From the NCBI GenBank assembly GCA_902630715.1, contig CACOVO010000006.1, positions 1 through 64,000 of the forward strand: a stretch of DNA of 64,000 bases, in the 5' to 3' direction. The notes beneath the pieces are model-generated. The model ran no database searches. It saw nothing but the letters and a program-made list of their open reading frames with translations, and was not told the DNA's origin. Positions within the stretch are counted from its first letter, which is position 1; every line of letters begins with the position of its first letter. Of the stretch, positions 1 to 18,016 are shown in pieces. Source of the DNA: an uncultured SAR86 cluster bacterium (GTDB lineage: Bacteria > Pseudomonadota > Gammaproteobacteria > Magnimaribacterales > Magnimaribacteraceae). A program made the position numbers and the translations under genes.

Positions 1-1
1 A

Positions 2-1270
2 TGGAGCTATGGGCAGCGTCTATTCGATAGATTGATGTCGAATAAAGAAACAGTTCTCAGCTTCAGATTTGCCGGAGATAGGGATCTGCAGAAGAATCTC
101 TTGAATGATAAAAGGTTAAAGAAATTTACCGATGAAATTTTATCTAATCAAACTAATGCTGGAAGGTTGCATATACGTAATTTATTGGGAAATTCTTTAA
201 GAGTATCTGAAAGTTCAGCTCCAGAAATTTCAGAGCTATTTACACACTGTCAGAATACTCTTCATTTGAACGAAAAGTCTCTTCACGCTTTCATTTATAA
301 CTCACCCGAAGTAAATGCAAGTTGTTTTTATGATGGAGAAGAAATAACGATAGGCATTTCTTCTGAATTAGTAAAAGTTATGTCCAAAGACGAATTAACT
401 TTTGTCATAGGACACGAATTTGGGCATGCATTATATGACCATTACCGATTACCTGCTCATGGATTGTGCCAAGGTAATGTTCCGGCAAGTAAGACTCTTA
501 AACTTATGTCTTGGAGTAGGCAGGCAGAGATTTCGGCTGATAGAGCTGGGTTATTGTGTTGCGATGATATCAAAGCTGCTACGAATTCATTTATCAAACT
601 TAGTTGCGGCCTCAGCGAAGAATATGTCTCTTTAAATATTGATGATTTTGTTTCTCAACTTGATGAGTTAAAAGAATTCGAAGACTGTGATGATTCTGAT
701 GTCTGCTATTCCTCTCACCCTCTAAGTCCCTTGAGAGTTTCAGCACTAAATAATTTTTGGATATCTGAAGGTTTCAGTAAACTTTCTACCAAAAAAATCT
801 CTAACCAGCTGACTGACGAAGAAGTAGATAAAAAGATTTTTGAGATTCTTAATTTCATGGAACCAGAGAATAATAAGAAAGTTTCAAAGAACAATTCTCA
901 AGATCTCAAAAAAACGGATTTCTTGATAGTAAGTAGTTATTACGTTGCTTCAGCCGATCAAGATTTTGCAAAAAGAGAATTAGTTAGCTTAAAGGAGGTA
1001 TGTGGGATAGAGGAAGTAGATGCCTTTATTACCAATTTAGAGGCTCATCAAGATATAAAAAAACACATTTCTAAAGAGCTTACAGAAACCGCCAAAACCT
1101 TCAAAAAGAAAAGCAAGTCATTAAAATGTTCCGCTCTACAGAGTATTGTAACAATTGCTAGATCCGATGGAGAATTAGCCAAAGAAGAGATTGTTGCTTT
1201 ATATGAGATTGCCAAAATGATTGGGCTGAAGGAAACTTTTGTTGATAACATACTTAGATTCCTAGATTAA
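2..1270 (+). CDS. M48-family zinc metallopeptidase with C-terminal TerB-like domain (5' end outside window)
   Basis: Cytoplasmic-looking zinc peptidase. Counting from the TTG at 32, the metal motif HEFGH is at residues 128-132 and a downstream ExxxD (166-170, EISAD) supplies the expected third ligand, which is the M48 signature. The last 50 residues (about 364-412, with SDGELAKEE) resemble a TerB/DjlA-type helical domain. The middle is acidic and has no membrane segment, unlike HtpX. The frame stays open from base 2 through the TTG at 32 and the ATG at 35, and the upstream codons read plausibly as protein (YGQRLFDRL), so the true start probably lies left of the window. The cation channel gene starts 11 bp after the stop, which suggests one transcript. 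Substrate unknown. Confidence 0.8.
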   Translation, partial: WSYGQRLFDRLMSNKETVLSFRFAGDRDLQKNLLNDKRLKKFTDEILSNQTNAGRLHIRNLLGNSLRVSESSAPEISELFTHCQNTLHLNEKSLHAFIYNSPEVNASCFYDGEEITIGISSELVKVMSKDELTFVIGHEFGHALYDHYRLPAHGLCQGNVPASKTLKLMSWSRQAEISADRAGLLCCDDIKAATNSFIKLSCGLSEEYVSLNIDDFVSQLDELKEFEDCDDSDVCYSSHPLSPLRVSALNNFWISEGFSKLSTKKISNQLTDEEVDKKIFEILNFMEPENNKKVSKNNSQDLKKTDFLIVSSYYVASADQDFAKRELVSLKEVCGIEEVDAFITNLEAHQDIKKHISKELTETAKTFKKKSKSLKCSALQSIVTIARSDGELAKEEIVALYEIAKMIGLKETFVDNILRFLD

Positions 1271-1281
1271 TTATCAATGTT

Positions 1282-2073
1282 ATGAACTTTGTATCAGCCT
1301 TTCAGAAAGTTAGAAATAATAATCTCTTCGAAGGTTTTGTTATTACTGTAATCTTAGTTTCTGCTATATCAATAGGTTTTAGTACGTTTGATGAATTTTT
1401 AGAAGATAAATACATAATCTGGCTTCAAAGGTTGGATTATTTCATTACTTTATTTTTTTTAGTAGAGGTCTTAATCAGAATCATCGCCGAGAAGAGCTTA
1501 TTAAAGTTTTTCAAGAACGGCTGGAACACTTTCGATTTTATTGTTGTTTTTGTTAGTTTAATTCCAATTGATGGCAATGAAACTGTCCTGCTTGCTAGAC
1601 TTATAAGGATCTTTAGGCTTTTAAGAATGATAAGTTTCGTTCCACAATTTAGAGTCTTAACAGAGGCTCTAATTCTATCTATTCCCCGAGTAGGTTACGT
1701 GATGTTATTCATGTTCGTAGTATTTTATATTTACGGTGCTTTAGGAAGCTTACTTTTTGGGGAACTTGACCCTTTACATTGGGGAAATATAGGTCTTGCA
1801 ATGCTTACTTTATTCCAAACAGCAACATTAGAGGGTTGGCCAGATCTGTTATATGAAGCGTTTGAAGTCTATCCATGGTCTTGGATTTTCTTTGTTTCTT
1901 TTATAATCATAAATTCTTTAATTTTTATGAACATGATTATCGGAGTGATAATAGATGTCATAGTTAGAACTAATGATGAAGAAGTTCCAGAAAACATTGA
2001 GCTTCTCGAAAAAATAAACCATAAAGTAGATAGTCTTGGTAAAGAAATAGAAAATTTAAAAAAAAATTCTTAA
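1282..2073 (+). CDS. Single-domain voltage-gated cation channel (BacNav/CavMr type)
   Basis: A 263-residue six-helix channel subunit expected to form inner-membrane tetramers. S1 is at about 17-35, S2 50-68, S3 81-96, S4 103-120 (arginines spaced every third residue, ARLIRIFRLLRM), S5 137-157 and S6 200-227. The pore filter is TLEGWPD at 182-188. A heptad-rich tail (about 240-263) fits the tetramerising coiled coil of bacterial sodium channels. NaChBac-type filters read TLESW. The glycine after Glu and the added Asp resemble, from memory, the filter of the calcium-selective channel CavMr, so calcium permeation is possible but inferred. It follows the M48-TerB gene by 11 bp. Confidence 0.9.
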   Translation: MNFVSAFQKVRNNNLFEGFVITVILVSAISIGFSTFDEFLEDKYIIWLQRLDYFITLFFLVEVLIRIIAEKSLLKFFKNGWNTFDFIVVFVSLIPIDGNETVLLARLIRIFRLLRMISFVPQFRVLTEALILSIPRVGYVMLFMFVVFYIYGALGSLLFGELDPLHWGNIGLAMLTLFQTATLEGWPDLLYEAFEVYPWSWIFFVSFIIINSLIFMNMIIGVIIDVIVRTNDEEVPENIELLEKINHKVDSLGKEIENLKKNS

Positions 2074-2273
2074 CCTCTTTTTGATAAAAATTTGAACCTT
2101 AATATTTTAATTGAGATATCTATAAAATAGTGTCCGTCTTTCCGGACTGTCAATAAGATCATTAATTTTTAGAGGAGGTTATTAACTCTTATTGCAGATG
2201 TTTTTCTATGTGACACACCTTCTGCTGGCATCATCTCGTATACACCCACGAGCAGGGCACTAAAACTTGGGTA

Positions 2274-2308
2274 TATAATACGGTGACAATGCGACAAAAT
2301 GTGTCGCA
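2274..2308 (+). promoter_or_regulatory. Promoter -10 and palindromic operator of the WYL regulator
   Basis: A perfect TATAAT lies at 2274-2279. A perfect 7-bp inverted repeat follows: TGCGACA at 2290-2296, 5-bp spacer, TGTCGCA at 2302-2308. The repeat covers the expected transcription start and ends 21 bp before the ATG at 2330. WYL regulators of the BrxR/CapW kind bind such repeats and repress their own operons, so autorepression is the natural reading. No convincing -35 is visible. Binding by the adjacent regulator is inferred from position. Confidence 0.6.
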
Positions 2309-2329
2309 AAGATGTATTATTATCTCTAT

Positions 2330-3325
2330 ATGAGTGATACCACGCTACGTCAACTAAAGCTCTTGGAGTTACTTCCAAGACAACCTTTTAAAAAATCTAC
2401 CCAAACTCTCAAAGAAAACCTTTCGGAAATTGGTTTTGAAGTCTCAACAAGAACCATACAGCGCGATTTAAAAAATTTATCTAGTATCTTGCCTTTAATT
2501 AGCGATGAGCGAGATAAACCTTACGGCTGGTCTTGGCATAAAGATGCTTCAGGACTTAATCCAGCAATGGATCCCATTGAGGCATTAACCTTCTCTTTAG
2601 CCCAAGAATACCTAGAACCAATAATGCCCAGTAAAAGCTTTAAAAGGATGAATATTTTCTTTGAAAGAGCAAATAGCGTTTTGAAAGAAATGGATAAAAG
2701 CTCTATAAAAAGATGGAGAGATAATGTGAGAGTAGTTCCACAGTGGCAGTCTTTGATTCCTCCAGAGATAAATGAAGAGGTTGAGGCGCAAATATATGAT
2801 GCACTTTTACATGGTAATCAGTTAGATGTTTATTACCTAAAAAGAGGAAATAAAAAACCGGAAAAGAGAATAGTTAATCCTTTAGGAATTGTTTTACAGG
2901 GAGTTGTTCATCGTTTAATTTGCACTATGGATGGCAGCGATAATCCAAGACATCTTCCTATTCATAGATTCAAAAAAGCAAAAGAAAATGGTAAGAGAGT
3001 CGAAACTCCTCAGGATTTTAACCTCGATAGCTATATTGAGAGTCAAAATATAGGTTATTTAATTTCAGTAAAACCAATTCAGCTTGAAGTCCTCTTTCAG
3101 TCAATGGCCGGTTTCCATCTTACTGAAACCCCGATTGTTAAAGATCAAGATTTAAAAAAGTTAAGTGATGGTAGATATAGACTTAAAGCTAAGCTAGCAG
3201 ACACTTCTCAATTGAGATGGTGGCTATTAGGTTTTGGAGGACAAATTGAAGTCGTAAAACCTAAATCCCTCAGAGATGAATTCAAGCAAGTAGCAAAAGA
3301 AATAAAAAATATATATGATGCATAA
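2330..3325 (+). CDS. WYL-domain transcriptional regulator (YafY/BrxR/CapW-like)
   Basis: DNA-binding regulator of about 331 residues. An N-terminal winged helix-turn-helix (about 1-60, with RTIQRDLKNL as recognition-helix region) is followed by a WYL domain (roughly 150-225, containing LDVYYLKRG and a conserved HRL/IHRF segment) and a C-terminal WCX extension. This is the architecture of regulators that guard many phage-defence operons by sensing nucleic-acid ligands. ATG 2330 is preferred over the in-frame ATG at 2312, which would add six residues including four tyrosines. Neither has a clear Shine-Dalgarno. It reads in the same direction as the island genes that follow and probably controls at least 3379-6271. 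Confidence 0.88.
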   Translation: MSDTTLRQLKLLELLPRQPFKKSTQTLKENLSEIGFEVSTRTIQRDLKNLSSILPLISDERDKPYGWSWHKDASGLNPAMDPIEALTFSLAQEYLEPIMPSKSFKRMNIFFERANSVLKEMDKSSIKRWRDNVRVVPQWQSLIPPEINEEVEAQIYDALLHGNQLDVYYLKRGNKKPEKRIVNPLGIVLQGVVHRLICTMDGSDNPRHLPIHRFKKAKENGKRVETPQDFNLDSYIESQNIGYLISVKPIQLEVLFQSMAGFHLTETPIVKDQDLKKLSDGRYRLKAKLADTSQLRWWLLGFGGQIEVVKPKSLRDEFKQVAKEIKNIYDA

Positions 3326-3378
3326 AAATAATATAAATTATATATTGACATAATTATATAATAATTTAAGGTTACGTA

Positions 3379-3843
3379 ATGGATTTAATAAATAGAAGCA
3401 AAACCTATGATGCAAGAAGAGAGAGATTTCTTAAAGCTAAGAGTATAAGACTAAAGAAATTGCATAAATCTCTAGAGAGTATAAGAAAATTATCAATTAA
3501 ATCTAATCATGCCTATACAGATGAGGACGTAGGAGAAATAACCAAAACACTCTCTAGAGGCATTTATTCTGTGATTCATAAATTTTCCTCTAGTGCTGAT
3601 AATAGACTGAAGTATTACTTAGAGGCTGAAGAAGAGCACTACAAATATTTATATGAGAATGATCGTGAACTTTTTAATCTTATAAAATTACAAACACCTC
3701 ATCTCGAGAAATACTTTGACAAAATTGAAAGTCAAAATGACAACCATATTGACAAACAAATAAGTTCTCTCCGAAGGGAAATAAGTGAATTCCAAGATAA
3801 ATTGAGACTTATGCAAGATCATCTAGATGACCGAGATGACTGA
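3379..3843 (+). CDS. Hypothetical charged coiled-coil protein
   Basis: I do not recognise this 154-residue protein. It is rich in Lys, Arg, Glu and Ser, has no signal peptide or membrane segment, and its last third (about 115-150) has heptad-like spacing that suggests a coiled coil. It begins 53 bp after the WYL gene, in a very AT-rich gap, and its 3' end overlaps the next gene by 17 bp. It is therefore the first of four overlapping co-directional genes ending with RmuC and a GxxExxY protein. The tight coupling implies a shared function, perhaps as a DNA- or complex-binding accessory subunit; that role is inference only. Confidence 0.7.
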   Translation: MDLINRSKTYDARRERFLKAKSIRLKKLHKSLESIRKLSIKSNHAYTDEDVGEITKTLSRGIYSVIHKFSSSADNRLKYYLEAEEEHYKYLYENDRELFNLIKLQTPHLEKYFDKIESQNDNHIDKQISSLRREISEFQDKLRLMQDHLDDRDD

Positions 3844-4618
3844 ACCTAATAGAAGTAATTCTCCAGATTTTTTGCACATAAAGAAATTGCTTTCGAACAG
3901 GTATATGTGCTCGTCTTGCTGTGGAATGTGTTTTGCAATATTTCAAGATAAATACATAAAAAGTTTTTTTTCTAATGAAGATCTTCAAAAAATAAAAAGT
4001 TATTCAGTTTACAGGCAATCACCATTTAATTTTCAAGATCTAGACTATATAAGAAAAGGTAAAATTCTTGAAAAATTACTTTCTGAGGTAAAACAAATAG
4101 ATCCTTCTGAAAACATTGATTCAATTAAATTCTCAGCTCTTTTGGGAAGACTTAAACTTCTCTATGGGGTAAATTTTTTCAAAGACGAATTGAATCTTAC
4201 TTACGCTGGCTCCCTAATACAATCCTGGGAAACTAAAGAAAAAGAACATAGGCAAAGGCTGAAATTTCAAGAGTTAGAGCAAGAAAAAATTAGAGAAAGG
4301 AACAAGTTAGCAAAAGATCTAAAAAACCTGAGAAAAGATATTAGGAAGAATGAAAGAGAAATAGTTAGAAAAACTTTTCTTTATAATTTTGCCACTTTAG
4401 ACCCTATAAAAAAACTAAGAAAAATCTTAGAGGGTCTAGAAATTCCTCTTATATCCATACCAGATAGTTATTTGTTTTCTCCAAGCCTTGATTTAAGGAA
4501 ACGGGTTCGTGAAGAATTTAGTGAAGAAGAGCTCCAAAGTCTAAGAATTAAGTTTGGTTCCAATTTAAAAAGAAATAAACAAAAAATTTTTAGGCAAATA
4601 TTGAAGGTTTTGAGATGA
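3827..4618 (+). CDS. Hypothetical protein with N-terminal Cys cluster and coiled coil
   Basis: Unrecognised 263-residue protein. Residues 26-35 carry a compact cysteine cluster (MCSSCCGMCF) that could bind zinc or a cluster, although no second cysteine pair is obvious. The middle (about 125-190) is a long Lys/Glu-rich coiled coil, and the tail is strongly basic. There is no signal peptide. It overlaps the preceding gene by 17 bp and the following rmuC by 4 bp (ATGA), so the three are very likely translated together. The cysteine cluster, coiled coil and basic tail would suit a DNA-associated scaffold, but no family assignment is possible by eye. Confidence 0.7.
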   Translation: MTEMTEPNRSNSPDFLHIKKLLSNRYMCSSCCGMCFAIFQDKYIKSFFSNEDLQKIKSYSVYRQSPFNFQDLDYIRKGKILEKLLSEVKQIDPSENIDSIKFSALLGRLKLLYGVNFFKDELNLTYAGSLIQSWETKEKEHRQRLKFQELEQEKIRERNKLAKDLKNLRKDIRKNEREIVRKTFLYNFATLDPIKKLRKILEGLEIPLISIPDSYLFSPSLDLRKRVREEFSEEELQSLRIKFGSNLKRNKQKIFRQILKVLR

Positions 4619-5766
4619 GCGATTTTTATATAATTCTCATCTTTTGTTTTGCCAGTCTACTTACAGGAGCTATTTTAGGTGTTTTTCTTTCTCCAAAAAT
4701 ATTCAAGGATAAATTTTCAAATATGTTCAGAGATTCCGCTAAAGAAGTTCTTGGAGAGGTTGCGAAGGGAAAAGAAAAAGATTCACTTTCTGAATTAGAT
4801 AAAAAGAAAGATATTATTTCAGTCGAAATGAATGCAATCAAAACGTCAATTGATGAAGAGCTAAGGACTTTAAGCGACTCTGTCTCTAAAGCAAAGAATG
4901 TCTGGGAAAGAGATACTGGTACTTTAGCAGAGGGTATCAGTAAGCTTAATAAATCGCATACTGCGTGGGCAGAGGCATTATCCAATACTTCTGTTCAAGG
5001 GAATCTTGGCGAGGAGTCTTTAAAAGGCATGCTTGATAATTTTGGTTTGTATGAAGGCCCTGGATATGAATATCAAGCAACTTATACAACTATAACTGGA
5101 GAAGTATATCGACCTGATTTCACAATAAAAACAGCTGACGGAGGAAAAATTTTTATAGATTGTAAAGTGCCGATTAATGCTTTTCAGGAGGCAGTTAAAC
5201 ATGAAGATGACGATGAAAAAAAACGCCTTTTAAAAAAACATGCTAAATCTGTTTTAGACCATGCCAAGGCTTTGGGGAAGAAGAAATACCAAGAATTAGA
5301 CAGTAAATCTCCTGACTTCACTATTTTATATTTGCACAATGTCGCATTATTTTTAGCCGCCGTTGAGGAAATGCCGAATATTGTGGAAGAGGCCTCTAAG
5401 TATAAAGTAATTATATGTCCGCCTGTGTTGGTCTATGCTACTTTAAAGACAATTATGCTAGCTATGCATCAAAGAGATATAGAAGAGAATGCAAAAGAAA
5501 TTGCGAAAGCCGGTAATGAACTTCATAAAAGACTAGTTAAGTACTTAAAACATTTTAGTGGAATTGAGAGAGGGCTATTCCATGCTAATAGTGCTTATAA
5601 CGATGCTATCTCTTCGTTTAAATCTAGATTAGAACCACAAGCCAGAAAATTTCAGAATTTGTTATCGCATGATATTGAAGGCGAGCTGCCGCAACTTAAA
5701 TCTATCGACACATTGCACTTACCAAATGACTCAAAATCAAAAAATGATGGAGGAGATAATGAATAG
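4615..5766 (+). CDS. rmuC: RmuC-family DNA recombination / nuclease-like protein
   Basis: RmuC proteins limit DNA inversion and rearrangement and carry a PD-(D/E)XK nuclease-like fold. This 383-residue copy has the family layout: one N-terminal membrane anchor (about 5-24), an alpha-helical linker (about 40-120), then the RmuC domain with GNLGEESL near 130 (family GxWGE), RPDF near 163 and FIDCKVP near 177. The PD...DxK spacing is the nuclease-like signature. It sits inside a four-gene overlapping run, sharing 4 bp with the upstream gene and 8 bp with the GxxExxY gene, and not in a housekeeping setting. Here it may act as the membrane-tethered nuclease of a defence module; that is inference. 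Confidence 0.88.
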   Translation: MSDFYIILIFCFASLLTGAILGVFLSPKIFKDKFSNMFRDSAKEVLGEVAKGKEKDSLSELDKKKDIISVEMNAIKTSIDEELRTLSDSVSKAKNVWERDTGTLAEGISKLNKSHTAWAEALSNTSVQGNLGEESLKGMLDNFGLYEGPGYEYQATYTTITGEVYRPDFTIKTADGGKIFIDCKVPINAFQEAVKHEDDDEKKRLLKKHAKSVLDHAKALGKKKYQELDSKSPDFTILYLHNVALFLAAVEEMPNIVEEASKYKVIICPPVLVYATLKTIMLAMHQRDIEENAKEIAKAGNELHKRLVKYLKHFSGIERGLFHANSAYNDAISSFKSRLEPQARKFQNLLSHDIEGELPQLKSIDTLHLPNDSKSKNDGGDNE

Positions 5767-6271
5767 CCAAGAACAATTAGTAAAATTTACCAATCAGGTT
5801 TCATCATTGGCGATTGAAGTTTATGAAGAATTAGGTTCAGGCTTTAAAGAAGATACACTTCAGCAAGGTTTGGCTATAGCTTTCAGGCAGGCACGCATTA
5901 AATATTTAAGAGAAACGCACCTTGAGATATTTTATAAGAAAGAAAGTTTGGGCTTATTTAGATTGGACTTTTTCATACCCGCTCAAAAGAATAAGAAATG
6001 GGAGCTAAAACACCCAGTTATTATTGAAACAAAGGCAGCCGCAAAATTAAATGTTGATGCTCGATTGCAGTTAAAAAACTATTTGATATCGCTTCCAAGA
6101 AATGTTTCAGAAGAGTTGAAGCATATAAAAGAAGGTATATTGATTAACTGGAATAATAAACAAGACCCTTTAGAATTTAAAAATAAACCTATAGATGTTG
6201 AAGTTGAGTTATGGTCTTTAAAGAAAAATAAATTTCAGCCGATTCATGATAACAAGACGGAAGAAGACTAG
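5759..6271 (+). CDS. GxxExxY-family protein (PD-(D/E)XK nuclease-like)
   Basis: Small GxxExxY-family protein of about 170 residues. The family motif appears in variant form (LGSGFKEDTLQ: Gly and Glu kept, Tyr replaced by Leu), followed by RLDFF and VIIETKA, which provide the Asp and ExK residues of a PD-(D/E)XK active site. The ATG at 5759 is chosen over 5669 because it follows a strong GGAGGAG Shine-Dalgarno and overlaps the rmuC stop by only 8 bp; the longer reading would run inside rmuC. Family function is not established. Its coupling to a second nuclease-like gene is the notable context. Confidence 0.8.
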   Translation: MNSQEQLVKFTNQVSSLAIEVYEELGSGFKEDTLQQGLAIAFRQARIKYLRETHLEIFYKKESLGLFRLDFFIPAQKNKKWELKHPVIIETKAAAKLNVDARLQLKNYLISLPRNVSEELKHIKEGILINWNNKQDPLEFKNKPIDVEVELWSLKKNKFQPIHDNKTEED

Positions 6272-6300
6272 TACTACAAAATGGAAAATTTAATTTAATT

Positions 6301-6633
6301 ATGCAATTTCAATCTTCGCATACAGCTTTTGGAAGAAATGAAACTTTCGGGTTGAGATACGCATGGATCCCTAAAGGTTATGAGTCTTATAGAAATGATC
6401 CTGCAATTTTTTCTGATGAATCAGCAACAGTTAAATTGGGTCTAGGAAAAAATATGGTTCAGTCAATGCGCTACTGGATGCAGGCTTACGGAATTATTGA
6501 CTCTGAGAGAGGAATAAGTAGTTTTGCTGAGGTTAAGAATATCAAAGGCCTAACTAAGGCCGATATAGAAAGCTGGTTGATAAATAATCCTGAGTTGGCA
6601 GAAGAAATTTACAGGAAAGATAAAAATGAATAA
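6301..6633 (+). CDS. Truncated DUF4007-like protein (N-terminal part only)
   Basis: The first 60 residues match the start of DUF4007: FGRNETFGLRYAW near 10-22 and a segment reading LGLGKNMVQSMRYW near 48-61. Full DUF4007 proteins are about 300 residues. This one stops at 110, and the last 45 residues (KGLTKADIESWL and following) do not resemble the family's later part as I know it. No continuation appears in other frames before 6726. It may be a decayed remnant or a stand-alone N-terminal module. DUF4007 genes occur in defence islands, some with phosphorothioation-type genes. It lies 29 bp after the GxxExxY gene and just left of the composition change. Confidence 0.55.
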   Translation: MQFQSSHTAFGRNETFGLRYAWIPKGYESYRNDPAIFSDESATVKLGLGKNMVQSMRYWMQAYGIIDSERGISSFAEVKNIKGLTKADIESWLINNPELAEEIYRKDKNE

Positions 6634-6725
6634 TCTATATTCTAAAGATGCAAAATCTAAAACAAGCTATTATGGCCTTTAAATTATTTAAAAAAAAATA
6701 TAGATAAATTCTGGAATTTTAGGTA

Positions 6726-9700
6726 ATGATAAAGCTTGAAGACTTAAGGATAGGCTCACAGATTCTTGGAATAGAAGGTAACGAAATTGTAAAGATTGTA
6801 CAAATAAATCCTATCGGTGATTCCTCGATAACAGTATATTACAAAGATAGTCATGGAGCAGTCTCTGAGCAGATGCTATTTCGTTCAGATGAAAGTCGTT
6901 TGGAGTTAGCTAAATCAGGAAAACCGTGGTCGTTTGATTCGAATGCAAAAGAATTTAAACTTGGACTTGAAGCTTATCGTGTAACTCAGGCTGCTTTATT
7001 CGACCCCATGATGGCTATCCATACTTCCGATGTAGATCCATATCCGCACCAAATTTCTGCTGTATATGAGCATATGTTGCCCAGGCAGCCATTACGTTAT
7101 GTTTTAGCTGATGACCCAGGCGCTGGCAAAACAATTATGGCAGGTGTTCTGATAAGTGAATTATTAATGCGTGCAGATGCAAAGCGCATTCTTATAGTGT
7201 CACCTGGTTCGCTCTCGGAGCAATGGCAAGATGAACTTCTAGAAAAATTTGGCTTAACTTTTGATATCTTTAGTCGTGAAAAACAAGAGCAATGCGCCTC
7301 TGGGAATTATTTTGAAGAGTCCAATCAATTGATATGTCGTCTGGATCAATTATCACGAAATGAAGATTTTCAAGAAAAACTGAAAAATACTGATTGGGAT
7401 TTAATTATTGTAGATGAGGCACATAAGCTGTCGGCTAACTATTTTGGTAATAAAGTAAATAAAACTAAGCGATTTCAGTTAGGCGAATTATTAGGATCTA
7501 TAACACGCCATTACTTACTGATGACAGCTACGCCTCATAATGGCAAGGAAGAAGATTTCCAGATATGGTTGTCTTTACTAGATAGTGATAGGTTTTATGG
7601 TAAGTTCCGTGAGGGAGCTCATCAAATTAATATATCCGATATGATGCGCCGCATGGTGAAGGAAGAGTTGCTTAAGTTTGATGGCACCCCATTATTTCCT
7701 GAGCGAAAAGCTTACACAGCCAATTACGAACTATCTCCATTAGAGGCTTCTCTCTATACAAAAGTAACTACTTATGTCCGTGAAGAAATGAATCGAGCTG
7801 ATAATCTTGATGGTAAAAAGAAAAATAACGTAGGGTTTGCTTTGACAATGCTCCAACGCCGTTTAGCATCAAGTCCACAAGCAATATATGAATCCTTAAA
7901 GCGTCGTTGTAGACGTTTAGAGGAACGTTTAAAGGAAGCAAAGCTTGTAGATAAAGGCCTATCCTTTAATGATGGAATTTCTCAAATTAAAGGCAATTTA
8001 CCTGATAATTTTGATGAGCTTGATGAAGATTTGAGTGCCGAGGAGTATGAGCAGTATGTTGAGCAAGTTGTTGATCGCGCTTCGGCTGCAGAAACTATTC
8101 CAGAATTAGAAGCTGAGATACTTATACTCAGAAGTTTAGAAGAGGAGGCACACTCTGTTATTAAGTCAGAAAATGACAAAAAATGGGAAGAGCTTTCAGT
8201 ATTATTGCAAGACAGTCCGGAAATGTTTAATTCCAGTGGAAGTCGTCGTAAGTTGATAATCTTTACAGAGCATAAAGATACTCTTAATTATCTTGTGGGT
8301 AAAATTGGAAATATGCTTGGTAATCATAATAGTGTGCGTACAATTTCAGGTGATACAAACCGTGATGAGCGCCGAAAAGTTCAAGAAGAGTTTCGTAATA
8401 ACTCTGAGGTTCTTGTGTTGGTTGCTACAGACGCAGCAGGAGAGGGTGTGAATCTTCAGAATGCAAACCTAATGGTGAATTATGATTTACCTTGGAATCC
8501 AAACCGTTTAGAACAACGCTTTGGGCGTATTCATCGAATTGGCCAAACAGAAGTATGTCATTTATGGAATCTGGTTGCCAGCGAAACTCGTGAAGGCGAA
8601 GTCTTCCAAAAACTTTTTAATAAAATAGAAATTGAGAAGAGAGCCTTAGGTGGAAAGGTATTCGATGTTCTCGGTGAGGCTTTTGACAACGTATCTCTCA
8701 AAGATTTAATAATTGATGCAATTAGGTACGGGGAAGATCCAGACATACGCTCACGCATGGATGAGATTATTGAAGGCGCTCTTGATTCCGATCACCTAAT
8801 AGAGATATTAAAACGAAATGCCTTGGTCGATCAAAGCATGGGTCTTGATGGTCTCTATGCCGTCAAAGAAGAGATGGAAAAAGCAGAAGCCCGTAAACTA
8901 CAACCTTATTTCATACGTGCTTTTTTTACTGAAGCTTTTTCAGTGTTGGGAGGAGAATTTAGACAACGTGAGTCTGGACGATTTGAGGTAAGTCATGTGC
9001 CTGCAGCTATTCGTGAAAGAGACCGTGTTATCGGTGAGAGTCGCACACCCGTATTGAAAACATATGAACGTATATGCTTTGAGAAAAAATACATTCGACA
9101 AACAGATAAAGTTATGGCTGATTTGATCCATGCAAAGCATCCTCTAATGCATGCCATTACAGATATGGTATTACAAACCCATAGAGTCAAGTTGAAGCAA
9201 GGAGCTGTATTAATGGATCCAAGCGATGATAGTATAGAACCCAGGGTTTTATTTATGATTGATCATACTGTGAGTGAGCCCAATAACAATGATCAAGTTG
9301 CATCTAGAAGATTACAGTTTGTAGAAATTAATGAACAAGGGGAAGGAGTAAATGCAGGATGGGCACCTCACTTAGATTTACAGCCTCTTGATGATTATGA
9401 TCTAACACTAGTTGCTGATATCCTAGAGTCTGATTGGATAAATCAAAATCTTGAAGAATCCGCCCTTAAGTTTGCTTCGCAAAAATTGGTTCCTGATCAT
9501 TACAGAGAAGTCAAAGATCGCCGAGAACAACAGGCTGATAAAACCCTAGAAGCTGTTAATGAACGTTTGGTAAAAGAAATAAACTATTGGTCAGAGCAAT
9601 ACATAAAATTAACAGATGATGTGAATGCTGGTAAAAAACCACACATTTTACCTGAAACAGCTCGTTTGCGAGTTGATGATCTCACGGCACGCTTAGAGCA

Positions 9701-10238
9701 AAGAAAAGCTGAGCTCATTACACTTAAAAACGTAGTTTCTAGAACTCCAGTAGTTATAGGTGGAGCATTAGTGATACCGCAAGGGTTACTCTCTTCTCGC
9801 AAAGGCGAAACCCAATTTTCTACAGATGCGGTAGAACGTGCTCGTGTCGAGCAAGTGGCGATGAATGCAGTCATGGAAACTGAAAAGGCATTGGATAATT
9901 TGGTGAAGGATGTTAGTGCAGATAAATGCGGTTGGGATGTCACCTCTCGTCCACCAGTAAATGCAGATGGTTCTATAAAGCCTGATCGACATATAGAAGT
10001 CAAAGGTCGAGCTAAAGGCCAAAGCACCATTACCGTCAGTCGTAACGAAATTATGTATGGCTTAAACCAAGCAGAAAAATTTATTTTGGCTATTGTGATT
10101 GTTGATAATGATTCACATGAGGGACCTTATTATGTAAAAAATCCATTCACAATTGAACCTGATTTCGGTGTTGCCAGTGTTAATTATGATCTGAGTGATC
10201 TGCTTTCAAAAGCAGTAGCACCAGAGCAAACAACTTAA
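6726..10238 (+). CDS. SNF2-family helicase with C-terminal DUF3883 (DISARM DrmD-like)
   Basis: Large superfamily-2 DNA helicase/translocase of 1170 residues. Walker A is DDPGAGKT (129-136), the DEAH box is at 230-233, motif III reads TATPHNG, and motif VI is [11 protein letters not shown] at 597-607. These are the marks of SNF2-type ATPases encoded in phage-defence clusters. The last 120 residues carry a DUF3883-like segment with HIEVKG at 1089-1094, which may be nuclease-like. It is followed 6 bp later by the DUF1156 methylase gene, in operon fashion. Arginines are largely CGT/CGC, unlike the AGA/AGG-rich genes on either side, which points to later acquisition. It is likely the motor of the methylase/DUF499 cassette. 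Confidence 0.9.
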
Positions 10239-10244
10239 GAGCGG

Positions 10245-13175
10245 ATGATGACGAGTTCACAAGAAACCAAGATATTTAGCCCCAAAAAACTCATCGAAGT
10301 CACATTACCTTTGGATGACATTAACATCGCCTCAGCACGAGAAAAATCTATTCGCCATGGGCACCCAAGCACCTTACACTTATGGTGGGCGCGGAGACCG
10401 TTGGCGGCAGCTCGTGCCGTAATATTTGCACAGATGGTGAATGACCCCGGCTATCAGCAAGACGGCGGCTTTAAATACGGCGTGAATAAAAAAGAAGCGG
10501 AAATAAAACGCGAAAAACTGTTTCAAATAATTCGTGACTTAGTGAAATGGGAAAACATCAATAACGAAGAAGTACTAAACCGCGCTCGCGGAGCCATCAA
10601 AGAAAGCTGGCACGAAACCTGTCATTTAAATCGTAATCACCCAGAAGCTGAAACACTTTTTAATCCTCAAACTTTACCTAATTTTCACGATCCCTTTGCT
10701 GGAGGCGGTGCCATACCGCTTGAAGCACAACGCCTAGGGCTTGAAAGCTATGCAAGTGATTTAAACCCAGTGGCGGTCATGATCAACAAAGCCATGATCG
10801 AGATACCTCCCAAGTTTATGGGTCAAGCACCGGTTGGGCCAATACCAGAAGCCGATAAACAGGAGATGCTTTTGGAGGAATGGAGTGGCGCAGAAGGTTT
10901 AGCCGAAGATGTTCGCCGTTATGGCCATTGGATGCGCGACGAAGCAATTAAGCGAATTGGGCATTTGTACCCTAAGGTTAAAATTACTGATGAAATGATA
11001 AATGAGCGTCCAGATCTAGCAGCGTATAGAGGAGAAAAGCTGACTGTAATTGCTTGGTTATGGACGCGCACGGTGAAAAGTCCTAACCCAGTCTACAGTC
11101 ATGTCGATGTGCCTTTGGCGTCAAGCTTTGTGCTGGCAAGTAAAAAAGGCAAGGAGGCTTATGTCCAACCAGTAGTTCAAGGTGATCAGTATAGATTCGA
11201 GGTGAAAGTCGGAAAAATTCCTGATAATGCACGGGAAGGTACGAAAACAGGTAGGGGGGCTAGTTTCAACTGCATCATGTCTAATTCACCTATGTCAAAA
11301 GAGCATATTCGTAGTGAGTTTCAGGCAAAAGAGACGAGTAATAAGTTAATGGCAGTAGTTGCTGAGGGAGCCAAAGGCCGAATTTATATTTCTCCACAGC
11401 CTGGAATGGAAGAATTAGCAAAATCTATAACTCCAGAATGGAAACCTGAATTTCCTATGAATCAAGATAGCAGTAACTTAATAAGTGGCCGTGGGTATGG
11501 TTTTACCTCTTGGCATGAAATTTTTACTCCTCGCCAACTGGTAGGGCTCACTACCTTTTCCGATCTTATTCAAGAAGCGCGCAGCAAAGCTATTGCTAAC
11601 GCAAAAACTGCAGGGGTACCTAATGATGACGTGGGTATCGATTCAGGAGGTGGCGGCGCAACAGCATATGGGGATGCTATTGCGGTTTATTTATCAGCCG
11701 CGCTAGGAAAAGCTAGCGATTATAATTCTTCGATAAGCACATGGGGTAGCAGTAGACAGACAATACGAAACACTTTTGGCCGACAAGCGATACCAATGAC
11801 GTGGGATTATGCCGAGGCAAATATTATAGGCGATTCAACCGGAGGCTTTTTAAGCGGCATCGATCAAGTATGTAGGGTTTTAAATAAATTTACACCTGCC
11901 CATAGTGGACATGTTCTACAGCAAGATGCTGCAACTCAAAGCATTAGTAACAATAAAGTTATCTCCACTGACCCTCCCTACTATGACAATATCGCTTATG
12001 CAGACCTATCAGACTTTTTCTATGTTTGGATGCGGCGTTCATTAAAAGCCATTTATCCTAATTTATTTGCTACTATGGCTGTGCCAAAAGAAGAAGAATT
12101 GGTTGCCACTCCTTACCGTCATGGAAGTAAAGAAAATGCAGAAACCTTCTTTCTAGATGGCATGACAAAAGCTATTCATAATATGGCAGACAAAGGCCAT
12201 CCTGCATTCCCAGTATCAATTTATTACGCTTTTAAGCAAGCTGAAACCAAAGAAGGCAGCACCTCAAGCACAGGGTGGGAGGCTTTTCTGGAGGCAGTTA
12301 TCCGAGCTGGATTTTCGATTGATGGAACTTGGCCGATGCGTACGGAAATGGCTAATCGTATGGTTAGTTCTGGAGCAAACGCACTGGCTTCCTCCGTTGT
12401 ATTGGTTTGTAAAAAACGGGAGGTCTCAGCTGAGTCAATCTCGCGGCGTGAATTCCAACGTGAACTTAGAGAAAATATGCCTGAGGCCTTCGAAGCCATG
12501 ATTGGCGGCGAAACCGGTTCGACGCCTATTGCCCCAGTTGATTTAGCACAAGCCGTCATTGGCCCTGGCATGGCCATCTATTCAAAATATTCTGCAGTAC
12601 TTAACCAAGATGGCAACAAGATGAGTGTGCACGATGCACTGATTTTAATTAACCGCTCCATTACTGATTACCTAAGCCCTGACAGTGGCAACTTCGATGC
12701 CGACACCTTATTTTGTGACGATTGGTTTAGCCAATACGGTTGGGGTGAAGGACAATTTGGTCAGGCTGATACGCTAGCACGTGCTAAAGGTACCTCGGTA
12801 GAAGGTGTACGCGAAGCTGGTGTGATAAAAGCTGCTGGCGGTAAAGTGCGCTTACTGAGGTGGAGCGAGTATCCCAGTGACTGGGATCCTAAAACAGATA
12901 ATAGAACCCCTGTTTGGGAAGCTTGCCATCACATGATACGTAAGTTAAATGAAGAAGGCGAAGACGGTGCAGGTGAACTGTTAGCACGAATGCCAGAACA
13001 TGGTGAAAATATTCGTCAATTGTCTTACCATCTTTATACCTTCTGTGAGAGAAAGAAGTGGGCCGAAGATGCTCGTGCTTATAATGAGTTGATTGGAGCA
13101 TGGCATTCCGTTGTGTTAGCTTCCTATGAAGTAGGTCATAAAGGTACACAAAAAGAATTAAATTTGGATATTTAG
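10245..13175 (+). CDS. DUF1156-containing adenine-type DNA methylase (COG1743-like)
   Basis: Predicted AdoMet-dependent DNA methyltransferase of 976 residues. The N-terminal DUF1156 region contains [18 protein letters not shown] near 35-52. The AdoMet-binding motif I is [17 protein letters not shown] from 149, and the catalytic motif IV is DPPYYDN at 576-582, of the DPPY type used by amino-methylating enzymes. The long insert between the motifs is usual for this family. It sits 6 bp after the helicase and 10 bp before the DUF499 gene. Arginine codons are mostly CGT/CGC and GC is clearly higher than in the core genes. It probably marks host DNA in a self/non-self discrimination system; the target site is unknown. 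Confidence 0.9.
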
Positions 13176-13185
13176 GGGTGTAAAA

Positions 13186-15966
13186 ATGAGTTTAAAGCCA
13201 TGGCGTGAAATTGCACAACCACATAAAGACGTATTGGAAGGAACTTTTAAGCAATCTGAATTTGCTGCTGATATTACTCAGGTAGCAAATGAAACTGCAA
13301 CACCGGAATATCAAGATCCAGAAAAGTTTTTTTCTCGCACCTTCATCACTGAGGGAATGCGACTTTTGTTGGTATCAGTGGCACAACGTTTATCAAACTT
13401 AGGTGGTGACCCCGTTATTCAACTCCAAACTGCTTTTGGTGGTGGTAAAACACATACAATGCTGGCAGTACTTCATTTGGCTCAAAATAAGGTTAATATT
13501 GATAAATTAGAAGGTATATCAGTTATCTTAGAACAAGCAGGATTAAAAAAAGTACCTCTAGCAAATACAGCAGTACTAGATGGTATTAATATGTCAGTAA
13601 GCCAGGGCAAGTTTCATGGTGATATCTGTGTTAACACTCTTTGGGGAGAAATGGCTTGGCAATTATTAGGCCAAGATGGTTTTAACCTAGTTGCAAAGAG
13701 CGATCAAGATGGCACAGCACCAGGTAAAGACGTGTTGATTGATCTATTAACTAAAGCAGCGCCATGCGTAGTAATGATAGATGAACTTCAAAAGTTTTTT
13801 AGCGACTTAACTCCAGGAAAAAAACTTAATGCAGGCACTTATGAAGCCAACCTAAAGTTTGTTCAGGCTCTTACTGAAGCTTTTAAGGCTGTTCCTAATG
13901 TTATTTTGCTTGCATCATTACCTGAATCAGAAACAGAAACAGGCGATTCTTTTGGTCAAAAGGTACTAGTTGCATTAGAAAAACACTTTGGTCGTGTTGA
14001 ATCTGTTTGGAAACCGGTAGCTTCCGAGGAAGCATTTGAGATAGTGAGAAGGCGATTATTCGAATCGGCGGGTGATTCTGCACAAATAGAAGGTATCTGT
14101 CGTCAATATTGTGACTTTTATCGCAAACATGCCGAAAATTTCCCTACAGAAACACAATCAAATCAATATTTTGATCGAATGTGCAAGTCATATCCTATTC
14201 ACCCAGAAATTTTTGATCGACTATACGAAGATTGGTCAACGCTTGATAAATTTCAACGCACAAGGGGTGTACTTCAATATATGGCCGTAATTATTCATAG
14301 GTTGTGGGCTGATAATAATCAAGATAGCCTAGTTATGCCTGGATCAATCCCTCTCGAAGATAGTTTAGTTCGTGATAAAAGTATTCACTATTTACCGCCT
14401 GGGTGGGAGCCTGTACTAGAACGTGAAGTGGATGGTCCATACTCTGAACCTTATCGAATTGATAATGAAGATACAAGATTTGGAAGTGTTCAAGCTGCTC
14501 ACAAAACTATGCGTTCTATTTTTTTAGGAAGCGCTCCTAGTTCTAGCAACCAAGCTGTAAAAGGTATTCAGTTAGAAAGGATTTTGCTGGGCACAATCCA
14601 GCCCGGACAAGTTATAGGAATCTATAAAGATGTACTTAAACGTTTACAAGATTCATTACATTATCTTTATCATAATAGGGATAGATTTTGGTTGGACACA
14701 AAACCTAACTTACTTCGTGAAATGGAAAGTCGGAAGCAGAATATTGATAAACTAGAGCTTCATAATTCAATAAAGAAAACTGTAAGTAGTATATTTGGCA
14801 ATAAATCTGTTTTTGCAGGTATACATGTATTTAATAATTCAGTGGATGTTCCAGATGATTTCGATTCAGGTCCGAGGTTGGTAGTTCTTCCACCTAGTGA
14901 TAATTACACCAAAGCAAATGATAATATTGCACTTAGATCTGCAGAAAAAATACTATCATTTCGTGGCGATAAGCCGAGGCAAAAACAGAATCGTCTTTTG
15001 TTTTTAGCACCAGATGCAGATGAAGTTAATAGACTATATGACGCAGGAAGATCTAAATTGGCGTGGAGTGAAATTAATAATGATATTAAAAGTAATAAAT
15101 TAAACCTGGACCTTTTTCAGTCCAAACTTGTTAAGGACGAATTAGATCTTTCAGAAACAGTACTTTTGCAAACAATAAGAGAAGCTTACAAATGGATCCT
15201 TTGTCCAATACAACTTAGCCCAACAGATACCAGTGTCGAGTGGGAAACAGTTCAGGTTTCTACTAACTCTCCAAACCTTATTAAAGAAATTGAAAATAAA
15301 TTATATGAGGAAGAATGGATAACTTCTGAGTGGTCTGCCATTCATCTTAAAAAATTACTTGAAAATTTTTATTTTAAGGATGAAATATCTCACGTAAATG
15401 CTTTAAAAATTTATCAAGATACTTGCTGTTACCTTTACCTACCCAGATTAATAAACGACCAAGTTTATAAAAAGACAATAAATGAAGGTGTAAAAAGTAA
15501 AGATTTCTTTGGTTTTGCTGCTGGTAAAGACGGAGATTCTTTCTTAGGTTTCAGTTTTGGTAACGGTGTTATGTCAATCTTAGATGATCAAAGTCTATTA
15601 ATAAGTAAAGAAACTGCACTAAAGTATAGAGAAAAAATAGAATCAGATATAACTCAGGATGAGCCAGAAACAACTCCAAGTGATGAAGATCCTTCCTCTT
15701 CACAACCAACAGGCACTGAGAAATCTTCTGTAAATAACCAATTTTATGGAGTGATTAAGCTTGACCCTTTAACTGCAAAATTAAAGTTCTCTGCAGTAGT
15801 TGATGAAGTTATTCAGCAATTTACCTCTAGACTTGATGCGGAGGTAACCATCTCTGTTGATATTCAGGCAAATTCAAAGAAAGGTTTCGAGGACGATATA
15901 CAGCGATCTATTAAAGAAAATTGTAATGTGCTTGATTTCAGTAGCTTTGACTTTGAAGATGAATAA
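13186..15966 (+). CDS. DUF499-family AAA-like ATPase (COG1483-like)
   Basis: Large ATPase of 926 residues. The N-terminal segment [12 protein letters not shown] is typical of the family. Walker A is GGGKTHT at 85-91 and Walker B is VVMIDEL with Asp199 and Glu200. A low-complexity linker rich in Asp, Glu, Pro and Ser (about 825-850) separates a small C-terminal domain. The start at 13186 follows a GGGG-containing ribosome site 10 bp after the methylase stop. DUF499 ATPases recur beside DUF1156 methylases and SNF2 helicases in predicted defence clusters, with no settled biochemical role. By eye the 5' part uses CGT arginines freely while the 3' part shifts toward AGA/AGG. Confidence 0.88.
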
Positions 15967-16086
15967 TAGAATAAAAAATTCAAACAACTCTATCTAAAAT
16001 GCTAAAAAAACAAACTATTCAATATACGTTATCGAATTAGATAAAAGTATCTAGATTCATCAAAAATTATTGAAACAGGTTTAACA

Positions 16087-17391
16087 ATGAAAGAAATCTC
16101 ACGGCATGAAGAAGCCTCTTTTGATAGCATAGAAAGCTCTATCATTGAAATATTAGAGAGTGATAAACAAGAGTTTATTTTTTTGACTGGTGCTGCGGGT
16201 ACTGGCAAGTCCACTATGCTTCAACACATAAGGAATCAGTTAGGTCTTAAAAAGATAGTGGTAGCACCAACAGGGATAGCGGCTTTGAATATTGGAGGAA
16301 GTACTATTAATTCAGCTTTTAGAATAGGGTTTGATACCATTCCAGAGATCACAAAGTCTAAAGATCCTCGGTTTGGAAAACTACTTAAGAACTTAGAGCT
16401 TCTGATTATTGATGAGATTTCAATGGTAAGAGCGCCTATGTTGGATGCTATCTCACAATCTTTACAAATTCATAGAAACAGCACAGAGCCTTTTGGAGGC
16501 GTAAGCGTATTGGCATGCGGAGATCTTTTCCAATTGCCACCAGTTGTGCAGACTCATGAAGAGAATACGATTTATTCTAAATATGACTCAGTATATTTTT
16601 TTGATTCATTGAGCTTTAAAGACATTAAAGCTCCAATATTTTTTGAACTAACAAAATCTTTCAGGCAAGAAGAAGATGATATTTTTTACGAATTGTTGAA
16701 TAACTTGAGATTAGGAATCAATCTAGAAGATACTGTAAAAAGAATTAACAAACATTGCTATGATCCAACTTTAGAAGTTGAACCCTTTATGACTCTAACT
16801 TCGCGCAAAAATAAAGCTGAAGATATCAACCTGCATAAACTTTCATACAATGACAATGAAGAAGAAACCATTCCCTCTAAAGAAAAAGGAGAATTAAAAG
16901 AGAATGATTTGCCCGCTCCTCGAGAATTAAAAATTAAAAAAGACGCTAAGGTCATGTTCATAAAGAATGACAGTGAAGGAAGGTGGGTTAATGGCACTAT
17001 TGGTACTGTAACTGAATGCCTTGATAAGAATAAGAAATGTATCAAGATAAAAGTCGATGGCAGAACTCATAAAGTTGAAAGAGAAGAGTGGAAAAAAGTT
17101 AAATTTACTTACGATGAAGACTTAGATGAAGTCTATGAGGAAGTGATCTCTTCATTTAAACAATTTCCAATAAAATTGGGCTGGGCCGTTACGATTCATA
17201 AGGCTCAAGGTTTAACGCTCGAAAGTGCTTCTGTTGATCTAGGAGACGGAGCATTTGCTACCGGTCAGGCTTATGTTGCTTTGAGCCGATGTAAAACTCT
17301 TGATTCTCTGAATTTAGTGAGAGAATTGAAAGTCTCAGATGCACTTGTAGATCCTGACATTCAGGATTTTCATGCAAAACACTTTAGTTGA
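16087..17391 (+). CDS. Pif1/RecD-like superfamily 1 DNA helicase
   Basis: A 434-residue SF1B helicase. Walker A is GAAGTGKS at 35-42, the Walker B variant is DEIS at 109-112, followed by GDLFQLPPV (motif III) and SFRQEE. The C-terminal half has WAVTIHKAQG at 366-375 and YVALSRCK, the paired motifs of Pif1/RecD2-type enzymes that unwind 5' to 3'. Accessory nuclease domains are absent. It lies 120 bp after the DUF499 gene, with a gap containing a small TTATC/GATAA inverted repeat, so it is probably a separate unit. Its AGA/AGG arginine codons match the host. It could belong to the island or simply flank it. Confidence 0.88.
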   Translation: MKEISRHEEASFDSIESSIIEILESDKQEFIFLTGAAGTGKSTMLQHIRNQLGLKKIVVAPTGIAALNIGGSTINSAFRIGFDTIPEITKSKDPRFGKLLKNLELLIIDEISMVRAPMLDAISQSLQIHRNSTEPFGGVSVLACGDLFQLPPVVQTHEENTIYSKYDSVYFFDSLSFKDIKAPIFFELTKSFRQEEDDIFYELLNNLRLGINLEDTVKRINKHCYDPTLEVEPFMTLTSRKNKAEDINLHKLSYNDNEEETIPSKEKGELKENDLPAPRELKIKKDAKVMFIKNDSEGRWVNGTIGTVTECLDKNKKCIKIKVDGRTHKVEREEWKKVKFTYDEDLDEVYEEVISSFKQFPIKLGWAVTIHKAQGLTLESASVDLGDGAFATGQAYVALSRCKTLDSLNLVRELKVSDALVDPDIQDFHAKHFS

Positions 17392-17435
17392 TTAAAGCGA
17401 CATAAGCTGACGCAAAGCCAGGTTATTCTTTTATT

Positions 17436-17792
17436 ATGCAAATAAAAGATATAAAAGAAGAAACTATAATTAAAATCTCATTTCCTGACGAAACTGAGAT
17501 AGAGAACGACATTCAAAGAGTTATGTTGAGTACACACTACTTGATCGAGTATCTATTAGATATAGGCCTTGACTCCCTAGAAGTTTATAGAACGGTTATG
17601 TACATGGGTCTCAATAGATTTATGAGTAGCCAAAAAGATTTGGAAGCGGCAAGGCAGGAGGCTCAAATATACTTGGATGAAGCTTTAAACGGAGAAATTC
17701 TTGAGAGAAAGAAACTACAAGAATACTCTGGAGAGCATCCAGATTTCTTTTCGACATTTATTGACCCTAAACTCCCTCCAACTAAACAATGA
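17436..17792 (+). CDS. Hypothetical acidic helical protein
   Basis: Unrecognised 118-residue soluble protein. It is acidic, mostly helical by composition (residues 25-95) and has no signal peptide or cysteine cluster. It starts 44 bp after the helicase stop and its end overlaps the following small membrane protein gene by 4 bp (ATGA), so the two are likely co-translated. Nothing in the sequence reveals a function. Confidence 0.65.
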   Translation: MQIKDIKEETIIKISFPDETEIENDIQRVMLSTHYLIEYLLDIGLDSLEVYRTVMYMGLNRFMSSQKDLEAARQEAQIYLDEALNGEILERKKLQEYSGEHPDFFSTFIDPKLPPTKQ

Positions 17793-18016
17793 AATTTTTA
17801 GGGTTCATTGTCCTCCTGATATCCTTAGTAAACACCTTTGTAGCTGTCTTCGCTTATAGAGATTTCTCCATGTATCTGGCGGTGATGTTTTTGATTATTT
17901 CTGTTGGATACCCACTAGCCTTAATTTTAATAAGCAGGAAATATTACAAATATCACGAAAGTGATGACCAAGAAATTGAGGTGAAGGGACTTTTCTCAAT
18001 TGGTAATCCTAATTGA
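17789..18016 (+). CDS. Small two-helix membrane protein
   Basis: A 75-residue protein with two hydrophobic segments (about 3-22 and 28-50) joined by a short polar turn, followed by a polar acidic tail. It is predicted to be an inner-membrane hairpin. It overlaps the upstream 118-residue gene by 4 bp. I do not recognise the family. Confidence 0.65.
   Translation: MKFLGFIVLLISLVNTFVAVFAYRDFSMYLAVMFLIISVGYPLALILISRKYYKYHESDDQEIEVKGLFSIGNPN

What the first reader, a model, noticed from the sequence alone, without database searches (positions are those of the whole stretch)
3379..6271. Four overlapping genes pair two orphan coiled-coil proteins with two PD-(D/E)XK-type proteins
Overlaps of 17, 4 and 8 bp tie an unknown charged coiled-coil protein, an unknown Cys-cluster/coiled-coil protein, RmuC, and a GxxExxY protein into one unit, directly after a WYL regulator with its own operator. 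RmuC (PD...DCK) and the GxxExxY protein (D...ETK) both keep nuclease-like residues. RmuC has a membrane anchor. WYL regulators commonly guard phage-defence operons. Together this looks like a compact regulated nuclease system that I cannot match to a named one.
Basis: partly seen in the sequence, partly recalled or inferred. Interest (0 to 1): 0.75.

Follow-up and report, generated by a model that had tools for sequence, protein, structure and literature searches.

The report
Accessory nuclease genes of an Hma island
The four overlapping genes are real, but they are the front part of a larger regulated anti-phage island (a known Hma restriction-type system follows directly), in which a regulator-plus-RmuC-nuclease pair recurs in related bacteria with different defence systems attached.

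Summary
In detail: four same-strand genes with overlaps of 17, 4 and 8 bp follow a WYL regulator whose start is preceded by a perfect palindrome. They are not a stand-alone system. Directly downstream lie a DUF4007 stump and a complete HmaA-HmaB-HmaC (Hma, or DUF499 "BR Type-1") defence system. The whole island sits where relatives carry rmuC-PIF1. The exact quartet was not found elsewhere: the Cys-cluster protein (orf2) and HmaA occur in 1 of 203 genomes of the order, and none of 80 HmaA loci carries RmuC, GxxExxY or orf1. The pieces do recur. RmuC directly follows orthologs of this WYL in 12 of 30 loci, next to DISARM, Ssp/BREX-4-like, MORC/Z1, RecQ-DprA or nuclease genes, and the palindrome is largely conserved. 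orf1 is not an orphan: a homolog sits between WYL and RmuC in another family, and its core belongs to a small-protein family found at methylase/GHKL loci. orf2 stays unexplained. The RmuC here is a divergent allele in the native slot. Best reading: a WYL-controlled, swappable accessory module with an RmuC membrane nuclease (Shield-like in mode), joined to an Hma system: a new variant of known kinds. RmuC as hotspot bystander is the main rival.

The parts
2290..2308 (.). Palindromic operator TGCGACA-N5-TGTCGCA of the WYL regulator
   Evidence: perfect inverted repeat, <=2-mismatch sites expected 0.08 per window; similar palindromes precede most WYL orthologs outside one genus
2327..3325 (+). 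WYL/WCX transcriptional regulator (an upstream ATG at 2312 is also possible)
   Evidence: PF13280, PF25583; orthologs in 29 of 203 genomes of the order
3379..3843 (+). orf1: N-terminal ~75-aa core of a small protein family found at restriction-type loci, plus coiled-coil tail
   Evidence: homolog between WYL and RmuC in G456; family at C5-MTase/GHKL/Dnd loci
3827..4618 (+). orf2: Cys-cluster/coiled-coil protein, true orphan
   Evidence: no relative in 203 genomes of the order, viral contigs or plasmids; single-sequence model too weak to use, pLDDT 57
4615..5766 (+). RmuC, long type, N-terminal membrane anchor, RPD...DCK
   Evidence: PF02646; 56% to G024 RmuC, at most 27% to the RmuC of its own genus
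5759..6271 (+). GxxExxY protein (PD-(D/E)XK superfamily, D...ETK)
   Evidence: PF13366, TIGR04256; 34-39% homologs 1-2 kb from WYL in four other genomes
6301..6633 (+). DUF4007 (SspB/BrxP-type) N-terminal stump, 110 aa against a 288-position profile
   Evidence: PF13182 positions 1-68, SspB models; full-length relative in G020 directly after WYL-RmuC
6726..10238 (+). HmaA, SNF2 helicase with C-terminal NOV_C domain (E-x-K)
   Evidence: PDLC00659, 2122 bits, full length; PF13020
10245..13175 (+). HmaB, DUF1156 N6-adenine methyltransferase
   Evidence: PDLC00661, 1726 bits; PF06634
13186..15966 (+). HmaC, DUF499 AAA+ ATPase
   Evidence: PDLC00662, 1462 bits, full length
16087..17391 (+). PIF1/RecD-type helicase, the usual neighbour of rmuC in this family
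   Evidence: 73-81% to relatives' PIF1; rmuC-PIF1 adjacent in relatives
17396..17414 (.). second operator-like site (2 mismatches)
17436..17792 (+). 118-aa protein of the WYL neighbourhood
   Evidence: 44-48% homologs directly, or one gene, downstream of WYL in five relatives

Best explanation
A composite, WYL-regulated anti-phage island. The WYL protein binds the palindrome in front of its own gene and keeps the island low until a signal (probably a ligand produced in infection or DNA stress) releases it. The downstream Hma genes do the restriction: HmaB methylates the host's own DNA, and HmaC (ATPase) with HmaA (helicase-nuclease) degrades unmethylated incoming DNA. The four-gene stretch is a swappable accessory module. 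RmuC, held at the inner membrane by its N-terminal anchor, and the GxxExxY protein are PD-(D/E)XK-type nucleases that would add a second, less selective attack on incoming or processed DNA. orf1 and orf2 would be small partner or adaptor proteins. Shown here: gene content, overlaps, the palindrome and its conservation, recurrent WYL-RmuC adjacency, a non-native RmuC lineage in the native rmuC slot, and the complete Hma genes. Inferred: repressor action, nuclease activity, partner roles, defence.
For: HmaA/B/C at full length directly downstream. RmuC is the next, or next but one or two, same-strand gene after WYL orthologs in 12 of 30 loci across four genera, with differing defence genes beside it: DISARM (G060), Ssp/BREX-4-like (G020), C5-MTase+GHKL+Z1 (G456), RecQ-like+DprA (G455), Mokosh-like nuclease (G054 and kin). 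RmuC here is a different lineage from that of its genus, grouped 100/99 with G024 only, yet sits in the native rmuC-PIF1 slot. In G020 the WYL-linked RmuC is a second copy beside a native one, which a hotspot alone does not explain. The operator is largely conserved. Published precedent: RmuC-domain ShdA is a membrane DNase that gives phage defence, occurs embedded in DISARM-like operons and is often near WYL genes (PMC10270631).
Against: In most WYL-RmuC loci the RmuC is the genome's only copy and stands at its native place (dsbB-rmuC in family f3; PIF1 in f1), so it may be a housekeeping gene at an insertion hotspot. None of 80 HmaA loci elsewhere carries RmuC. Quartet and Hma differ in G+C (0.31-0.35 against 0.38-0.46), so they probably come from separate sources. 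orf2 has no relatives. No activity is shown.
Confidence: 0.55

Rival explanations
1. Hotspot bystander: rmuC is the ordinary chromosomal gene. Its locus attracts defence genes on both sides, and the RmuC allele was merely exchanged by recombination. The other genes are unrelated cargo.
For: Native synteny MFS-rmuC-PIF1-(peptidase)-amidase-FAO-malate synthase matches the window apart from the inserted genes. In f3 genomes WYL lies near the native dsbB-rmuC site, between dsbB and rmuC. One RmuC in nearly every genome with a match. The PIF1 of the window is also atypical for the genus (74-76% against about 90% within it), consistent with exchange of the whole segment.
Against: G020 has a WYL-RmuC pair in addition to its native RmuC, and G443 carries a related RmuC between a C5-MTase and an SNF2 helicase. 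WYL and rmuC overlap by 4 bp or lie within a few bp in most of these loci.
Confidence: 0.3
2. One reading: the four genes form a compact, self-sufficient nuclease defence system, unnamed so far.
For: Tight overlaps suggest one translation unit; two nuclease-type proteins; own regulator.
Against: The combination occurs only in this genome of 203 surveyed in the order; orf2 has no relatives; the components recur separately with other partners.
Confidence: 0.08
3. The island is decaying: Hma replaced an older Ssp/BREX-4-like cargo, whose DUF4007 stump remains, and the quartet is a leftover no longer used.
For: DUF4007 cut to its first ~70 profile positions, whereas G020 has the full gene directly after WYL-RmuC.
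Against: All four reading frames are open and overlapping, and the nuclease residues are kept.
Confidence: 0.07

Closest known systems
Hma system (PADLOC) = DUF499-centred Type-1 BREX-related (BR) system (PMC8565338, PMC12839542)
   Same: Complete helicase-methylase-ATPase trio, full-length profile matches; auxiliary PD-(D/E)XK nucleases beside BR loci are described as common
   Different: None of the 80 closest HmaA loci has RmuC, GxxExxY, orf1 or this DUF4007 gene, and only 3 have a WYL like this one nearby
Shield (ShdA, PMC10270631)
   Same: Membrane-anchored RmuC-domain protein in a defence island near a WYL gene; ShdA also occurs inside DISARM-like operons
   Different: ShdA reported only in Pseudomonas, about 520 aa, with ShdB-E partners always downstream; here 383 aa, partners orf1/orf2 upstream and no ShdB-E seen
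RTasRmuC (RmuC of DRT loci, PADLOC)
   Same: RmuC domain, E 1e-33
   Different: no reverse transcriptase in this island
DISARM with RmuC accessory
   Same: WYL-RmuC-C5-MTase beside DrmB-like and further genes in G060
   Different: the window has Hma instead
Ssp / BREX type 4 (DUF4007 = SspB)
   Same: DUF4007 piece; full version after WYL-RmuC in G020
   Different: only an N-terminal stump here; no SspC/SspD/PglZ next to it

Membership tests
Hma / Type-1 BR | HmaA SNF2 helicase, HmaB DUF1156 N6-MTase and HmaC DUF499 ATPase in one operon | tested here: met
   full-length profile matches, 6-bp and 10-bp gaps
Hma / Type-1 BR | C-terminal nuclease on the helicase, no PglZ | tested here: inconclusive
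   NOV_C domain with E-x-K at the HmaA C-terminus and no PglZ-like gene seen among the ORFs from 1 to 17800. That NOV_C is the active nuclease is from memory, not tested
Shield | RmuC domain with N-terminal membrane anchor | tested here: met
Shield | ShdA-type sequence (about 520 aa, Pseudomonas) with ShdB/C/D/E downstream | tested here: not met
   383 aa; downstream genes are GxxExxY, DUF4007 and Hma. ShdA itself was not held for a direct alignment
Shield | DNase activity and phage protection | not testable with these tools
   needs experiment
DISARM | drmA, drmB, drmC with a methylase | tested here: not met
   no DrmA/B/C in the window's island; HmaA scores 2122 bits to HmaA against 386 to DrmD
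Ssp / BREX type 4 | full DUF4007, PAPS reductase and BrxC/SspC | tested here: not met
   only positions 1-68 of DUF4007
Autoregulated WYL repressors of defence islands (BrxR/CapW type) | palindromic operator upstream of its own gene, conserved among orthologs | tested here: met
   binding itself not testable
GxxExxY (TIGR04256 / PF13366) | profile score above cut-off, D...ExK kept | tested here: met
   62.5 bits against 35 and 69 against 22; alignment
Housekeeping RmuC | ortholog of the genus's rmuC in the same place | tested here: inconclusive
   same place next to PIF1, but a different RmuC lineage

The most novel reading that the evidence does not exclude
WYL-RmuC is a mobile, operator-controlled defence chassis in this order: the pair, sometimes with orf1 between, travels with interchangeable effector systems (Hma, DISARM, Ssp/BREX-4-like, MORC/Z1, RecQ-DprA), and RmuC serves as a shared membrane-bound nuclease for all of them, extending Shield-like defence beyond Pseudomonas.
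Probability: 0.3. Interest if true: 0.65.

Novelty: new variant of a known kind. Interest (0 to 1): 0.42.

Why it matters
RmuC is an old recombination gene of unclear function, and Shield was reported only from Pseudomonas. A second bacterial order in which RmuC sits behind a WYL repressor next to five or more different defence systems would make it testable whether RmuC is a general partner of restriction-type immunity. It would also show how streamlined genomes swap defence modules at one chromosomal place. The orf1 family adds a small, unnamed protein found at methylase/GHKL loci in several families.

Tried and rejected
Quartet as part of the general Hma operon: rejected, 0 of 80 HmaA loci. 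orf2 relatives: none in viral contigs, plasmids, 203 genomes of the order, Pfam, NCBIfam, PADLOC or solved structures; one weak PHROG coiled-coil match, E 0.02. The weak order hits to orf2 (E 0.004-0.06) were short and not pursued. Single-sequence AlphaFold models of orf1 and orf2 had mean pLDDT 50 and 57, so no fold search was run. Weak PADLOC matches of orf1 to ZorA/Csm2 and of GxxExxY to Cas4/PDC-S19 were read as coiled-coil or superfamily noise. RmuC on plasmids: the three neighbourhoods looked at (Pseudomonas, Shewanella, Piscirickettsia) showed no defence island. WYL beside RmuC in two of 29 class-level loci gave no clear defence operon on inspection. The first RmuC tree lost the window by de-duplication and was redone. 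A simple binomial for WYL-RmuC adjacency is tiny, but genomes of one genus are not independent, so at least three separate origins is the safer statement.

Full report
Observation. The four genes are as described: 3379-3843, 3827-4618, 4615-5766 and 5759-6271, overlaps 17, 4 and 8 bp. The WYL gene (2327-3325) is preceded by a perfect palindrome TGCGACAAAATGTGTCGCA at 2290-2308 (sites with up to 2 mismatches expected 0.08 times). RmuC and GxxExxY pass curated family cut-offs and keep RPD...DCK and D...ETK.

What follows. The series does not stop at 6271. After 29 bp comes the first quarter of a DUF4007 gene (6301-6633; PF13182 positions 1-68), then HmaA, HmaB and HmaC at full length, i.e. the Hma system of PADLOC (PMC8565338), renamed DUF499-centred Type-1 BREX-related system in PMC12839542. 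HmaA carries a C-terminal NOV_C domain with an E-x-K, so the Hma core seems to bring its own nuclease. Quartet and Hma differ in G+C (0.31-0.35 against 0.38-0.46), which suggests separate sources.

Where it sits. The window begins at the first base of its contig, so the left end is unknown. To the right, amidase, fatty-acid oxidation gene and malate synthase are as in relatives. In nearly all relatives of the genus that could be looked at, the order is MFS transporter, rmuC (294-298 aa), PIF1 helicase, M20 peptidase, amidase, FAO, malate synthase. In the window the rmuC-PIF1 slot holds the island. The window's RmuC (383 aa) is not the genus's RmuC (at most 27% identical); its only close relative is that of G024 (56%), also next to PIF1. 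PIF1 too is atypical (74-76% to the genus, 81% to G030, against about 90% within the genus), while FAO is 98% to G012. So the rmuC-PIF1 segment was probably exchanged together with the island. The assembly is 64% complete and holds one RmuC.

Recurrence. In 203 genomes of the order the WYL ortholog occurs 30 times in 29 genomes and RmuC in 172. RmuC follows WYL on the same strand with 0-2 genes between in 12 loci: the window, G020, G054, G060, G438, G440, G447, G451, G453, G454, G455, G456. Where no gene lies between, spacing is mostly -4 to +7 bp. The genes beyond RmuC vary: DUF4007 + BrxC/SspC-like + PAPS reductase + GHKL (G020); C5-MTase with DrmB-like (MZB) and further genes (G060); C5-MTase + GHKL + Z1 (G456); RecQ-like helicase + DprA (G455); a Mokosh-like nuclease (G054 and kin); PIF1 (G440). 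In family f3 the native place of rmuC is next to dsbB and WYL lies near it, between dsbB and rmuC, which looks like an insertion hotspot. But G020 has a WYL-linked RmuC besides its native one, and G443 has a related RmuC between a C5-MTase and an SNF2 helicase. These speak for RmuC as a defence component. Hma itself and orf2 occur in the window's genome only.

The orphans. orf1 has a homolog of equal size between WYL and RmuC in G456 (23% over 142 residues, E 1e-9 pairwise). Its first ~75 residues match a small-protein family (core RRERF...R...NLSNKSNY...) found beside C5-MTase or other DNA methylase and GHKL-like genes in G011, G035, G097, G150 and G385, beside a GHKL-like gene in G417, beside Dnd genes in G015, beside a DNA methylase in G505, and upstream of an 800-aa protein near a DNA methylase on an Ensifer plasmid; one member, G249, showed no such neighbour on its short contig. 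Several of the GHKL assignments were read from the sequence by eye, not by profile. orf2 has no relative in anything searched and stays an orphan. GxxExxY homologs (34-39%) lie 1-2 kb from WYL in G503, G504, G505 and G463.

Operator. Palindromes of the kind (G)CGACA-N3-5-TGTCG(C), or the variant GCGTC...GACGC/GACGT, precede most WYL orthologs; in the g12 genomes a short gene lies directly upstream instead. A second site (2 mismatches) lies 22 bp before the 118-aa gene at 17436, whose homologs sit beside WYL in five relatives, so the right end of the WYL regulon may be there.

Mechanism and status. The best-supported account is a WYL-repressed composite island: Hma as the methylation-guided restriction core, the RmuC module as an accessory membrane nuclease layer working like ShdA of Shield (membrane-bound, promiscuous DNase, PMC10270631). 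It is not filed as Shield because size and partner genes differ. The main rival is RmuC as bystander at a hotspot. All functional statements are inference from families and neighbourhoods; nothing was measured.

Noticed in passing
window 32-2073: M48-type peptidase whose C-terminal part matches candidate defence family PDC-S48 (E 5e-5), followed after 11 bp by a voltage-gated ion channel (PF00520). Possibly another defence pair left of the WYL gene.
   Followed up: no
window 6301-6633: DUF4007 cut off after about 70 profile positions: looks like the remnant of an Ssp/BREX-4-like cargo replaced by Hma.
   Followed up: partly
window 17396-17792: Second WYL-operator-like site just before a 118-aa gene whose homologs lie next to WYL in five relatives.
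   Followed up: partly
L112, L115, L133-L144, L199: rmuC-PIF1 gene pair kept in this family with two unrelated RmuC lineages, suggesting a functional link between RmuC and PIF1-type helicases.
   Followed up: partly
L227, L228, L229, L231, L240-L242, L244, L245: Unnamed ~75-aa protein family (core NLSNKSNY) beside DNA methylase and GHKL-ATPase-like genes, in several cases directly before the GHKL-like gene.
   Followed up: partly
L003-L082: Many HmaA loci carry a ~300-aa gene directly upstream with a shared start motif (DISQAQRERL...), probably the usual regulator of Hma; different from the WYL in the window.
   Followed up: no
native RmuC of this order (L115, L178 and others): The short native RmuC proteins have lost the P of the PD motif (RVEF/QVDC...IDAKF), unlike the island RmuC (RPDF...IDCK).
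   Followed up: no
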